A stretch of DNA of 64,000 bases from Acephala macrosclerotiorum (lineage: Eukaryota > Ascomycota > Leotiomycetes > Helotiales > Mollisiaceae): contig MU119290.1 in NCBI GenBank assembly GCA_014904845.1, forward strand, positions 62,001 to 126,000, written 5' to 3'. Both the position numbers and the translations under genes were made by a program. Shown in pieces: positions 36,432 to 40,529 of the stretch. The notes beneath the pieces were generated by a model. The model ran no database searches. It worked only from the letters and a program-made list of their open reading frames with translations, and was not told the DNA's origin. The first letter of the stretch is position 1, and each line of letters opens with the position of its first letter.

Positions 36432-38124
36432 AATGTTGTCCCTGTGGCGCAAGAGCTGGGACAAGACCGATTACTGATTTACGATATTGAGAGTTAAGAT
36501 GCGGATGATAAAACAAGGCTAGACTGTAGGGTAGGTTGGCCAACTTTCGCAGAATCGGGAGCGAAAGGATATATGTACGACATAATTGAAGTTGGAAAAG
36601 GTGCGCGACCACCGGTAAGGCGTCTGACAAGGCTGAAGCCAAATGCCCTTTTCTGCAGGACATCCTAAGCGAGTCAAAGAGTGTGCCTCGAGTGGTGCGC
36701 TAGTTGCCGTGCTGTAAGAAATGTCTAGCACGTTGTTTAGCTTTGACGAATGGAAATCTATCGGTGAGGATGAAACTTATCGGCAAGGAAAGACAAGGCA
36801 GCTTTCGACAAAAAGGAGAGTCTGGAATCGGTCCTTTGGGGTCCTCAGTTCGTAACACAGAGATCCTGCATCCTTTCAAAATCTGGAATCGTGTGTTGTG
36901 ATTGCTATTGTTATTGCAGGACTGTAAATAGGGTCTGAGTGATGTTTGGTGGATCTAACACGGTGCGATGCGAACGCCCTCGTGCTACTCGGTGAGGGTA
37001 GTTGGGACAAATCCGCTACTCGCCCTTGGGAGTGACCAATCATGTCGTTTCGGTGTGAGATTGGCTATTGCTGGATCCTCGTGCCGCTACGGAATTGAGC
37101 AGTCCAGACTCTACTCCAGCGTTTCGGCGAGAAGTTTTGGCTAGAACCGTATATCTACACCTGCTGGATCCTCTTGACGTGGCATCTGGAAATTCCGTCA
37201 GGTCTTCACCGAGACCTTCTCACTGGACATCAGCGAAACTTCGCGGGTCGTGAATTTGTAAATTGTAGTTTCGGCGTGAGAACCTGATGCCAGATAGTGG
37301 CAGGAAGCTGGGATTCTAAGTTGTCCATGGCTTATATAATCTGTAGTCATTCGCAATGTGATTCTGAGGTTGCTATTGCCCATTGAATCTAACTCCAACT
37401 CACTAGAACCCATCGAAGCACACTTTATACCGTCAAGCATAATGATGGCGAGTTCCTATAAGCCACCGTATGACCCATCGAAGCTCTGGTTGGGAAACGG
37501 CTATACTTCTCTTATGAGCTCCAATGGTGGGAGTAGTCGAATACCCTCGATACCACTCATCTGATTCGATGCTGATGAGGTATAGGAGCGTTTGGGGCGA
37601 TGTTCTGGCCGGACACCGGCGATGTTGCCACTGAGCATCAACAGTCGAATCAAGAGACATGGTCGACAAACGCTGACGCAGGCTCGAGCGACGAAGCAAA
37701 GATTCATCAAAAGAATGCGCAAAAACAGACACACATAGAGGCAGGAAGGAATAGACAGAAGAAGAAGCGATGACCGAAGTGACAGGGAGAAGGGGAAGGA
37801 CTCAAATTGATTAGAACGTGAAGAAGAGCTGGCGAGCAGGATGCTATCCGAAATGTGTACATGTACATGCTGTATGAATAGGACTTTTGGCAGCTTCATT
37901 ACGATTGAAGGACCATTAGATTGATCATAACAAGCAAATGATTGATGAGAGACAGGAAGGAAACTGTTTTTGATTGATCTAAAAAAAACTTTGATCGCAC
38001 GTGCAACCCAGCCTCCTCAAATTCGCCAGACCGCCTTTCCTCGTTTTCTGTCCTCCAGAATCAAGCTACAATAGAAATGTAAATAAGCATTCCTCTGCCA
38101 GTTCTATTAATAGAAGCACCATCT
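36432..38124. other. Intergenic region upstream of the tRNA pair
   Basis: No coding gene supported. It contains the promoter side of the Zn2Cys6 gene and, at its right end, the upstream element of the first tRNA-Ser. Confidence 0.45.
38080..38089 (+). promoter_or_regulatory. TATA-like upstream element of tRNA-Ser(AGA)
   Basis: TAAATAAGCA lies 36-45 nt before the tRNA start. The same ten bases occur before the second tRNA-Ser gene. Confidence 0.5.
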
Positions 38125-38205
38125 GGCATCATGGCGGAGTGGTTATCGCGCTAGCCTAGAAAGCTAGTTCCTTCGGGAGCGCAGGTTCGAGTCCTGCTGA
38201 TGTCG
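38125..38205 (+). tRNA. tRNA-Ser (anticodon AGA), intronless
   Basis: An 81-nt cloverleaf is complete: acceptor GGCATCA pairs with TGATGTC (one G-U), and the D arm is GCGGAGTGGTTATCGC. The anticodon stem is CTAGC/GCTAG around loop CTAGAAA (anticodon AGA). The long class II variable arm is TTCCTTCGGGAG, the T arm is GCAGG-TTCGAGT-CCTGC, and the discriminator is G. The A and B boxes are intact. An oligo-T terminator follows at once. Confidence 0.97.
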
Positions 38206-38209
38206 TTTC

Positions 38210-38213: not shown

Positions 38214-38446
38214 GCAAATTTTTGCATCCAGCTTTTGTTTTGGGTTCCAAAGCCAAAGACTTTTGGACATTCTCAACTTTTCGGTGCCGAAGACAGTGCC
38301 GGCAAGATAGGCGAGCTGTTCGGCTAAACTCCACTCCTCCCTCACTTCATTCCACAAAGAGACTGGCGTTGAGTTCTCCATGGTGGTGAGACCTGGTCTT
38401 TTACTTTTCTGCTTCACCCGGAGGTAAGGAATGGTCCGTATAGATT

Positions 38447-38456
38447 TAAATAAGCA
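38447..38456 (+). promoter_or_regulatory. TATA-like upstream element of the interrupted tRNA-Ser(GCU)
   Basis: TAAATAAGCA, identical to the motif before the intact tRNA-Ser, ends 29 nt before the 6-nt 5' exon GGCACT. Its spacing fits transcription starting before that exon and not at the A-box exon. Confidence 0.5.
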
Positions 38457-38490
38457 CTTCTACACTAACAACAACGAATCAAAAGGCACT

Positions 38491-38541
38491 GTAAGTTGGA
38501 TCAATTCGTCATTTACACAGCCAATTCTAACATTCTTAAAG
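38491..38541 (+). other. Spliceosomal-type intron in the tRNA-Ser(GCU) acceptor stem
   Basis: 51 nt, donor GTAAGT, branch-like CTAAC at 38527-38531 (10 nt before the end), terminal AAG. It falls between acceptor positions 6 and 7. Size and signals match the protein-gene introns in this window. Confidence 0.75.
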
Positions 38542-38572
38542 TTGGCGGAGTGGTTAACGCGATGGCCTGCTA

Positions 38573-38592
38573 TGAGTTTACTCAAGCTGTTC
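38573..38592 (+). other. Canonical-position tRNA intron in the anticodon loop
   Basis: 20 nt, inserted one base 3' of the anticodon. It contains a TGAG/CTCA hairpin and an AGC that can pair with the GCU anticodon, as in ordinary nuclear pre-tRNA introns. Confidence 0.8.
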
Positions 38593-38612
38593 AGCCATTT
38601 CCTTCGGGAGCG

Positions 38613-38661
38613 GTAAGCACTCTATACTCTCGAGATTTGAATCAGAACTGATAATATGTAG
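38613..38661 (+). other. Spliceosomal-type intron at the variable-arm/T-stem boundary of tRNA-Ser(GCU)
   Basis: 49 nt, donor GTAAGC, branch-like CTGAT at 38648-38652 (9 nt before the end), terminal TAG. It separates the first base of the T stem from the rest. Confidence 0.75.
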
Positions 38662-38693
38662 TGTGTTCGAATCACACAGGTGTCGGAAACTTC

Positions 38694-38699
38694 TTTTTT
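38694..38699 (+). terminator. Pol III oligo-T terminator of tRNA-Ser(GCU)
   Basis: TTTTTT eight nucleotides after the discriminator, in the same TTCTTTT...TGC context as in the first tRNA gene. Confidence 0.7.
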
Positions 38700-39049
38700 G
38701 CTTAAATTCAGTTTTTTGGTCAACTCTCTCTTTTTCTTTGCCCCTCTCTAGCTCGCTTCGGTTCCGCATTCCTAGCTGCAGCTTTACCCGCTATCCTTTC
38801 CTATTTTGCAGCTTGACGCGTTGTTGACACGGAACACTCCATCGATCAAACTCTACGCATGGAAAGTCAGCACCTTGGAGGAACCCCCTCCCATAGACTG
38901 TCAACATTCTGTCTCCACAATTTCGTATCATCCTGACAATGTTGAGTACCACTGCACCCAAGAGAAACAACCTGGCAAGTTGTCGCGTTGATCACCCCGC
39001 CAACTTTTTATACAGTGTTTGTCTGGAGTTGCATTGGGGTTGCTTTAAT
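38700..39049. other. Short intergenic stretch
   Basis: Lies between the tRNA terminator and the Sam37 stop codon. Nothing coding is seen. Confidence 0.5.
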
Positions 39050-40529
39050 CTAAGAGACTGTCTCTACAGCTCTCACACCATCCTTCTCCACCTCAATGTC
39101 TACCTCTGCTATTGGCGCACCGTGGCTGTAGTTCCTCTCCGTCATCCTCTCCATCTGCGCCTGAGCATCCATCTGATTCGCTAGAAAAGACAAAGCCTCA
39201 CCCGCTTCTCCAAAGCTTTCCAACCCTTGACTCTTCTCCTCTGGTTCTTCGTGCCCAGGGAATGAGATCAAGCCTTGCTGAAACAGATATCCCCCTAAAA
39301 CTCCCAACCCCGCAATTAAACCTCCAATAGCATACAAGTATCCCCAATGCGAATCCTGCGTCCCTTCATCGGGTGTTTTTCCTCCATGCTGCCTCATCCT
39401 CGTATTCCTCCTTAGTTGTCCAAGAACTGGTATCGAATCTGCCATGCTAGACACGAAGGCACTGCCCACTGCCGCCGTATTTCTATTCTCTGGCGCTTTC
39501 CACGGAAGGTGCCCTCTCCCTCTCAACTTCCGTAATCGTACATCCAGCTCCGACTCTCCAAGCTTTGTCAAGAACGCATCGTTCAAACTGACATTCTTGC
39601 TGAAGACTGTATCCCTCATTCCTTCTGTCCATGTACATAATCCAGGGAACTTCGTCCGCATCATCTTCGATAGCCATGCTTGAGGTAGCTCTGGGATCAG
39701 CATTAAGGACAAATATCCCAACGCCAAACAATCTAGACTCGAGAACTGAGTATTAGAAACAAAGAATTGTTTCTTGTCTTTCAATCTCTGTAATGGCTCC
39801 AGAAAATCTGTAGTTAAAGCATCCAGTCTGATACTAGCACTAGCCTCTGGCGACGCAGCAAGCAGACTTGACACCGTATTCTTCGGCCTCCTCAAACTAT
39901 CCGGTATAATCGATTGTTCATGCGACGGCTTCCCATCTTCCGCATCAATATCCAAACTTGAAAGACCAAGATGTTCCGTCCTCTGCTTCGCAGCAGCTCG
40001 TATCGCAGGCGGGGTAAGGTAAGGGAGGGGAAAAGACTGGATCGTATTATACAACGGTCGCGTTACCTCGCTGTAATTCTGCGAAGAAACGTAAAGCGAT
40101 AAATCGAGGAGGGGTTGGCCATGCGATTCCACGAAAGAGGAGAACCTGTTCTACATCAGCCACCTATTCATCTAGTGCCAACACAACATACGCTATACAA
40201 TCCGCACCTTCTTGTTCTGGTAATCCGGCGTCGAGAACCCATTCCCCAGCTGACATTTGTGCGATGTAGTGGAATATATTGCGGAAGCCACCAATCCATA
40301 TCTCGCCATTTCGAAGTGCGGGGAGCTCATCTATTCTAGGTCAGTGAGGGCAAGATAAGCTGAATGCAGTCGGACGCGTACTAGTTGGACTGAGTGCTGG
40401 ATCACTGCTTGCTATCAGCTGCCACTTCCCACGAGGAACAGCTTGCTGCAGATACGCAATTGCAGCTAAGCAATGCGCGTCCAGAGATGGCAGACCAAAG
40501 GTTGGTCCCCAAACATGCAATTCGAGCAT
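39050..40529 (-). CDS. Mitochondrial outer-membrane SAM complex subunit Sam37/metaxin-like
   Basis: Three exons: 40529-40382, 40330-40192 and 40145-39050. Introns of 51 and 46 nt have GTACGC and GTATGT donors; the product is 460 residues. The start MLELHVWGPTFGLPSLDAHCLAAIAYL is the typical N-terminal thioredoxin-like (Tom37) domain of metaxins. It is followed by LRNGEIWIGGFRNIFHYI, the ADCIAFSSFVESHGQPLLDLSLYVS block and a GST-C-like half (DCLALGYLSLMLIPELP). A predicted transmembrane anchor lies at about residues 364-385 (YLYAIGGLIAGLGVLGGYLF). In fungi Sam37 helps to release beta-barrel proteins from the SAM complex and couples it to TOM. The acceptor of exon 2 was taken at GAATAG and not at the CTAG just before it, because only that choice avoids a stop. 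Confidence 0.92.

What the first reader, a model, noticed from the sequence alone, without database searches (positions are those of the whole stretch)
38485..38685. tRNA-Ser(GCU) gene carrying two spliceosomal-type introns plus a canonical tRNA intron
Removing 38491-38541 and 38613-38661 (GTAAGY...CTRAY...AG, 51 and 49 nt) and the 20-nt anticodon-loop intron leaves an 81-nt tRNA-Ser with every helix paired, including the acceptor stem whose first six bases lie 51 nt away. The insertions resemble this genome's protein-gene introns and not bulge-helix-bulge tRNA introns. Nuclear tRNA genes normally carry only the anticodon-loop intron, and their Pol III transcripts are not known spliceosome substrates. 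If expressed, the gene implies either spliceosomal processing of a tRNA precursor or a novel ectopic tRNA-intron pathway.
Basis: partly seen in the sequence, partly recalled or inferred. Interest (0 to 1): 0.93.

Follow-up and report, generated by a model that had tools for sequence, protein, structure and literature searches.

The report
Fungal tRNA genes with spliceosomal introns
In this root-associated fungus several transfer-RNA genes are interrupted by short introns that look just like those of protein genes, so making these tRNAs probably needs the splicing machinery normally reserved for messenger RNA, which would be a new way to build a tRNA.

Summary
The window is from the helotialean fungus Acephala macrosclerotiorum. 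All three tRNA-Ser(GCU) genes found in its 69.7-Mb genome carry a 47-51-nt GT-AG intron after nucleotide 6; two carry a second one in the T-stem. Exons match except for paired changes in the anticodon stem, while introns have diverged. Only the spliced forms are called tRNA-Ser(gct), 3 of 3. Five tRNA-Glu genes carry 53-58-nt GT-AG introns at one T-stem site; a sixth has none and equals the spliced form of three. All ten introns have a branch-site-like motif 9-10 nt before AG, like both introns of the neighbouring protein gene; 0 of 10 has a bulge-helix-bulge core. The Ser genes keep the promoter element of U6 and other tRNA genes at normal distance from exon 1. Best reading: Pol III pre-tRNAs spliced by the spliceosome. 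Against it: no RNA evidence, no relative searched, 5 of 10 acceptors are AAG, and two intronless tRNA-Ser(ACU) genes exist. Ten literature searches listed no earlier report.

The parts
38439..38456 (+). TATA-like upstream element TATAGATTTAAATAAGCA, shared with U6, SRP RNA and most tRNA genes of the genome
   Evidence: Exact match, 46 nt before exon 1; at most 4 mismatches upstream of 28 of 30 tRNA genes at 32-64 nt, median 45
38485..38490 (+). tRNA-Ser(GCU) exon 1: nt 1-6 of the acceptor stem
   Evidence: Pairs with 3' end of exon 3 only after splicing; identical in C76 and C183
38491..38541 (+). Intron 1, 51 nt, spliceosomal type: GTAAGT..CTAAC-10 nt-AG (AAG acceptor)
   Evidence: same site in 3 of 3 genes
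38542..38612 (+). Exon 2: rest of acceptor 5' strand, D-arm with A box, anticodon arm, variable arm
38573..38592 (+). Ordinary 20-nt anticodon-loop intron between nt 37 and 38
   Evidence: ARAGORN (it places the junction one nt further, 38/39); present in C183 (19 nt), absent from C76
38613..38661 (+). Intron 2, 49 nt, spliceosomal type: GTAAGC..CTGAT-9 nt-AG (TAG acceptor), in the T-stem
   Evidence: same site in C76 (51 nt), absent from C183
38662..38685 (+). Exon 3: T-arm with B box, acceptor 3' strand, discriminator G
38694..38699 (+). T6 run, Pol III-type terminator

Best explanation
These are functional nuclear tRNA genes with U2-type spliceosomal introns. Shown by sequence: the introns and their signals, recurrence in paralogues, conserved exons with paired changes, an intronless tRNA-Glu paralogue equal to the spliced form, and a Pol III-type promoter element and terminator. 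Inferred: Pol III starts about 18 nt upstream of exon 1 and transcribes both introns; the spliceosome recognises GTAAG and the branch site and removes the 47-58-nt introns in the nucleus; only then can the acceptor and T stems form, after which RNase P and RNase Z trim the ends, and the tRNA-splicing endonuclease and ligase remove the separate anticodon-loop intron. Decoding of AGC serine codons and part of glutamate decoding would then depend on the spliceosome.
For: Ten of ten introns read in full are GT-AG, 47-58 nt, with CTRAY (nine) or TTAAC (one) ending 9-10 nt before the end; the neighbouring protein gene has introns of 51 and 46 nt with the same spacing. Spliced forms are recognised as tRNA in 8 of 8 genes, unspliced in 0 of 8. 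3 of 3 Ser(GCU) genes found have intron 1; no intronless Ser(GCU) among the 6 and 16 hits of two pattern searches. The three mature Ser(GCU) forms differ only at three anticodon-stem pairs, each by a two-sided change. Intronless Glu gene C14 equals the spliced form of C73, C313 and C144. The upstream element stands 46, 42 and 42 nt before exon 1, as in ordinary tRNA genes, so intron 1 lies inside the transcript; T-runs follow 8-11 nt after the genes; no TTTT inside the three units from the predicted start. No BHB core in 10 of 10.
Against: No RNA data. 5 of 10 acceptors are AAG (counted), although fungal U3 introns use YAG in all but one case. The absence of TTTT in ten introns is weak: it occurs in 5.8% of shuffles. 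Two intronless tRNA-Ser(ACU) genes might read AGU, so the GCU genes need not be indispensable for every AGY codon. Intron 1 moves the A box about 50 nt away from the TATA-like element. The census is by similarity (up to 3 mismatches) and a more divergent Ser(GCU) could be missed. U6 and SRP RNA genes of this genome show no intron.
Confidence: 0.83

Rival explanations
1. Ectopic tRNA introns removed by the tRNA-splicing endonuclease and ligase, as in red and green algae and nucleomorphs, with GT-AG ends by coincidence.
For: Introns outside the anticodon loop are known there; many nucleomorph introns have no defined BHB motif (PMC3978253, passages). These genes also carry ordinary anticodon introns.
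Against: 0 of 10 introns has the 4-bp central helix; the best reach 3 of 4 (one geometry tested). GT, branch-site-like motif at 9-10 nt and AG are kept in introns that otherwise diverged, which endonuclease cutting does not require.
Confidence: 0.07
2. Dead or dying copies: introns inserted into tRNA pseudogenes that are not expressed.
For: No expression data. Damaged Ser- and Glu-like fragments do exist in the genome: L040, L115 and L055.
Against: All three full Ser(GCU) genes found carry intron 1; exons are identical apart from paired changes while introns diverged; promoter element and T-run are kept; three intron-bearing Glu genes have exons identical to an intronless one.
Confidence: 0.05
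3. The spliced tRNAs are made from longer Pol II transcripts (capped, spliced as usual) and not by Pol III.
For: Spliceosomes act on Pol II transcripts co-transcriptionally; the A box is displaced by intron 1.
Against: The U6/tRNA-type upstream element lies at the usual distance and a T-run follows directly; neighbouring large ORFs lie on the other strand.
Confidence: 0.04
4. Assembly error.
For: None found; raw reads were not available.
Against: Site-specific introns of different sequence occur on eight contigs: C89, C76, C183, C73, C313, C144, C11, C96.
Confidence: 0.01

Closest known systems
U2-type spliceosomal introns of fungal non-coding RNA genes, e.g. U3 snoRNA (PMC5832005: passages and section 3.2 read)
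   Same: GT-AG, RCTRAY-like branch site, short introns; copies with and without intron in one genome, also in Leotiomycetes
   Different: Host is a tRNA; branch-to-acceptor distance 9-10 nt against an average of 15; half of the acceptors AAG; two introns per gene; introns split the acceptor and T stems
mRNA-type introns in U6 snRNA genes of some yeasts (recalled, not read here)
   Same: Spliceosomal intron in a Pol III gene
   Different: U6 is a spliceosome part; the U6 hits of this genome are uninterrupted
mRNA-type intron in fungal nuclear 18S rDNA (title seen in the reference list of PMC11782384, passages)
   Same: Spliceosomal-type intron in a structural RNA not made by Pol II
   Different: Pol I transcript, not tRNA
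Canonical eukaryotic tRNA introns (anticodon loop 37/38, endonuclease and ligase)
   Same: One such intron is also present in the window gene, in C183 and in the Glu(CUC)-type genes
   Different: The inserts in question lie in the acceptor and T stems, are 47-58 nt and have GT-branch-AG signals
Ectopic BHB-type tRNA introns of algae and nucleomorphs (PMC3978253, passages)
   Same: Introns outside the anticodon loop of nuclear tRNA genes
   Different: No BHB core in 10 of 10; spliceosomal signals

Membership tests
U2-type spliceosomal intron | GT at the 5' end with GTRWG-like donor, AG at the 3' end | tested here: met
   10 of 10; nine GTAAG, one GTTAG; acceptors five AAG, three TAG, two CAG
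U2-type spliceosomal intron | Branch site near the acceptor (fungal RCTRAY, 6-36 nt, PMC5832005) | tested here: met
   10 of 10 have CTRAY or TTAAC ending 9-10 nt before the end; same spacing in the neighbouring protein gene
U2-type spliceosomal intron | Removal by the spliceosome through a lariat | not testable with these tools
   No RNA data
Canonical tRNA intron (anticodon loop, TSEN) | Position between nt 37 and 38 | tested here: not met
   Ser introns after nt 6 and in the T-stem, Glu intron in the T-stem; the separate 20-nt intron meets it
Ectopic BHB tRNA intron | Bulge-helix-bulge at the junctions | tested here: not met
   0 of 10 with a 4-of-4 central helix in any allowed register
Functional nuclear tRNA gene (Pol III type 2) | Cloverleaf with intact A and B boxes, upstream element, T-run | tested here: met
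   Ser; seven-sequence alignment all 161 cells paired, 13 of 23 pairs with two-sided changes
Functional nuclear tRNA gene (Pol III type 2) | Expression and aminoacylation | not testable with these tools
   No RNA data
Group I or group II intron | Ribozyme core | not tested
   No dedicated test; 47-58 nt is far too short for one (general knowledge), and Rfam at gathering score listed none in the window

The most novel reading that the evidence does not exclude
A new class of nuclear tRNA intron: spliceosomal introns are spread through Pol III genes of this fungal lineage (tRNA-Ser, both tRNA-Glu isoacceptors, probably further B-box genes and an unassigned Pol III-type RNA family), and the spliceosome is an obligatory tRNA-maturation machine acting on uncapped Pol III transcripts before RNase P, tying splicing capacity to decoding of AGC and glutamate codons.
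Probability: 0.65. Interest if true: 0.95.

Novelty: new variant of a known kind. Interest (0 to 1): 0.91.

Why it matters
Textbooks keep two splicing systems apart: the spliceosome for Pol II RNA, endonuclease and ligase for tRNA. Genes that need both in one precursor make the rule that Pol III pre-tRNAs escape the spliceosome directly testable, offer natural paralogues with and without the intron, and warn that gene finders miss them (ARAGORN called 0 of 8 unspliced genes). They would also show introns gained in some of the most constrained RNAs of a cell.

Tried and rejected
Pseudogene, endonuclease/BHB, Pol II transcript and assembly error were weighed (see rivals). I suspected that the pattern hit at C9:132922 is a tRNA-Pro because its T-arm resembles L093; a DNA search with the L093 tRNA-Pro(AGG) found only itself, so C9 is unassigned. 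A DNA search with the C96 tRNA-Glu(UUC) found only itself, so C27, C79 and C173 are unassigned too; that search also shows how easily split exons are missed. Pattern scans of viral and GTDB contigs for a Ser(GCU) gene with intron 1, or for its D-arm/anticodon segment, gave 0 in four scans; no eukaryotic relative could be searched. A statistical scan for short introns in the window gave 77 hits against 78 expected in all, with 36 against 23 at 45-64 nt; it was too blunt and the annotated neighbouring gene was used instead. A second genome-wide pattern, for introns just upstream of the A box, did not complete. The RF00005 search scored only 63 of 2302 candidates, so the census of ordinary tRNA genes is a lower bound.

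Full report
ORIGIN. The protein read from window 39053-40150 (minus) is 100% identical to a protein recorded as BDZ45DRAFT_654884 of Acephala macrosclerotiorum, whose longest contig is 195,646 bases, the length of contig C89 that holds the window. The species is a helotialean ascomycete, Mollisiaceae. The genome held, G000, has 69.66 Mb in 778 contigs.

THE GENE. The finding's coordinates are exact: exon 1 38485-38490, intron 1 38491-38541, exon 2 38542-38612 with a 20-nt anticodon-loop intron at 38573-38592, intron 2 38613-38661, exon 3 38662-38685. Unspliced, ARAGORN sees nothing; with both GT-AG introns removed it reports tRNA-Ser(gct), 81 nt plus the 20-nt anticodon intron. Intron 1 splits the acceptor stem after nt 6; intron 2 splits the T-stem after its first base.

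CENSUS OF tRNA-Ser(GCU). A DNA search found two relatives. Pattern searches with up to 3 mismatches gave 6 hits for a 21-nt 3' segment and 16 for a 19-nt 5' segment. The same three genes are in both lists; the others are tRNA-Ser(AGA) x3, Ser(UGA) x1, Ser(ACU) x2, the fragment C88 (L040), and eight 5' hits without a GCU anticodon. C76 has both introns (47 and 51 nt) and no anticodon intron; C183 has intron 1 (50 nt), a 19-nt anticodon intron and no intron 2. The three mature sequences differ only at three of five anticodon-stem pairs, each time on both sides. In an alignment of seven Ser tRNAs all 161 cells of 23 pairs are standard and 13 pairs show two-sided changes, reached by none of 500 shuffles (related sequences, so not a probability). 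Introns have diverged: interior identity at the same site is 0.61, 0.51 and 0.52 (intron 1) and 0.64 (intron 2); only C89 against C76 exceeds nearly all shuffles (2 of 200 and 0 of 200 as high), so those two still show common descent.

tRNA-Glu. One unit found by the promoter element (L106, C73) is tRNA-Glu(CUC) with a 53-nt GT-AG intron in the T-stem. A DNA search found four more full-length relatives and a fragment: C313 (54 nt), C144 (53 nt) and C11 (58 nt) have an intron at the same site; C14:194113-194190 has none, and its 78 nt equal the spliced C73, C313 and C144 (C11 differs at 5 of 78). Spliced C11 reads anticodon TTC. C96, an Rfam tRNA hit with a long insertion, is tRNA-Glu(UUC) with a 55-nt intron at the same T-stem site. 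So 5 of the 6 full-length Glu genes read have it; ARAGORN recognises 5 of 5 spliced and 0 of 5 unspliced. The Glu junction can slide over four registers, one of which is GT-AG.

WHAT KIND OF INTRON. The ten introns read in full (five Ser, five Glu) are 47-58 nt, GT...AG, with CTRAY (nine) or TTAAC (one) ending 9-10 nt before the end. The neighbouring gene, whose protein is recorded, has introns of 51 and 46 nt (window 40331-40381 and 40146-40191) with CTGAC and CTGAT 9 nt before the end; this is a comparison with two introns of one gene only. Shuffles of six introns gave all signals at a rate of at most 2e-5. None of ten has the BHB central helix; the Glu introns reach 3 of 4 pairs. None contains TTTT, against 2.3 expected, but zero occurs in 5.8% of shuffles. 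Against the reading, five of ten acceptors are AAG, while fungal U3 introns have YAG in all but one case.

TRANSCRIPTION UNIT. The element TATANATTTAAATAAGCA is found (at most 4 mismatches) upstream of 28 of the 30 tRNA genes fetched from the Rfam search, at 32-64 nt, median 45; for the three Ser(GCU) genes it lies 46, 42 and 42 nt before exon 1. Both U6 genes checked have it 28 nt before their start (C261; C37) and the SRP RNA match starts 29 nt after it. So intron 1 lies within the transcript, although it moves the A box about 50 nt further from the element. T-runs of 6, 9 and 4 follow 8-11 nt after the three genes, and no TTTT lies inside them. The four U6 hits and the SRP RNA hit are uninterrupted.

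HOW WIDESPREAD. A genome-wide pattern GTAAG..CTRAY..GTTCRANTC gave 30 hits against 14 for the reversed control. Six of the 30 were left out of the next step because the printed match was cut at 80 letters. Of the other 24, 18 pass a loose test (AG near the B-box pattern, branch-like motif 6-13 nt before it), among them the window gene and four of the Glu genes; given the control, several of the 18 are chance. Seven have AG directly before GTTCGATTC: the four Glu genes and C27, C79, C173, whose isotypes I could not read. Of 85 exact places of the upstream element I examined 50; an unassigned family, L066/L078/L102/L103, has GTAAG..CTAAC..AG (48-53 nt, motif 9-10 nt before the end) in 4 of 4, and the scan was positive in 7 of 50 rows (two rows are one unit) against 27 of 780 control segments.

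MECHANISM. Most likely Pol III makes the precursor, the spliceosome removes the 47-58-nt introns, then RNase P, RNase Z and the tRNA-splicing endonuclease act; with intron 1 present the acceptor stem is split by about 50 nt, so splicing should come before 5'-end trimming. Every step after the gene sequence is inferred. The ACU paralogues, which share the acceptor-stem 5' strand (GGCACTT in C30), show both sites empty; whether introns were gained by the GCU lineage or lost by the ACU lineage is open.

KNOWN OR NEW. A 2026 review treats tRNA splicing as spliceosome-independent (PMC13149111, passages); ectopic algal tRNA introns are described as BHB-mediated, many nucleomorph ones without a defined BHB (PMC3978253, passages); spliceosomal introns are common in fungal U3 genes (PMC5832005, section 3.2); an mRNA-type intron in fungal 18S rDNA is listed in the references of PMC11782384. 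U6 introns are recalled. Ten searches listed no report for nuclear tRNA genes; the library lacks most subscription papers and states that it holds no bioRxiv preprints. I file it as a new variant: known intron type, new host RNA class.

Noticed in passing
L029 (C17:233425-233505) and L034 (C30:193023-193104): Two intronless tRNA-Ser genes with anticodon ACU, close relatives of the GCU genes. A34 in a two-codon box is odd: as inosine it could also read AGA (Arg).
   Followed up: partly
L066, L078, L102, L103 (first 220 nt after the upstream element): Unassigned Pol III-type RNA family with a GGGTTCAAATCCC box; all four have GTAAG..CTAAC..AG of 48-53 nt at the same position, perhaps another spliced Pol III RNA. 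No Rfam match at gathering score.
   Followed up: partly
L059-L109: Most of the 50 examined places with the exact upstream element are followed by units that ARAGORN does not call; of 40 such loci given to Rfam only L074 (SRP RNA) matched at the unit. They look like several families of unknown Pol III RNAs or SINEs.
   Followed up: partly
L105 (C72, minus strand, 54 nt after the element start): A further unit with GTAAG..CTAAT..AG (58 nt), but this one contains TTTT.
   Followed up: no
window 38984-39002 (minus) = L055: A degenerate tRNA-Ser-like stretch (TTGGCGGGGTGATCAACGCG, preceded by AAAAAG) on the opposite strand about 300 nt downstream of the gene, probably a remnant copy.
   Followed up: no
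window 38124-38206: Ordinary tRNA-Ser(AGA) gene 278 nt upstream of the finding on the same strand.
   Followed up: yes
L106, L111-L114: These tRNA-Glu genes also carry a very short (7-nt) canonical anticodon-loop intron.
   Followed up: no
L040 (C88:149830-149850): 3' half of a Ser(GCU)-like gene with a paired T-stem change but no recognisable 5' part.
   Followed up: partly
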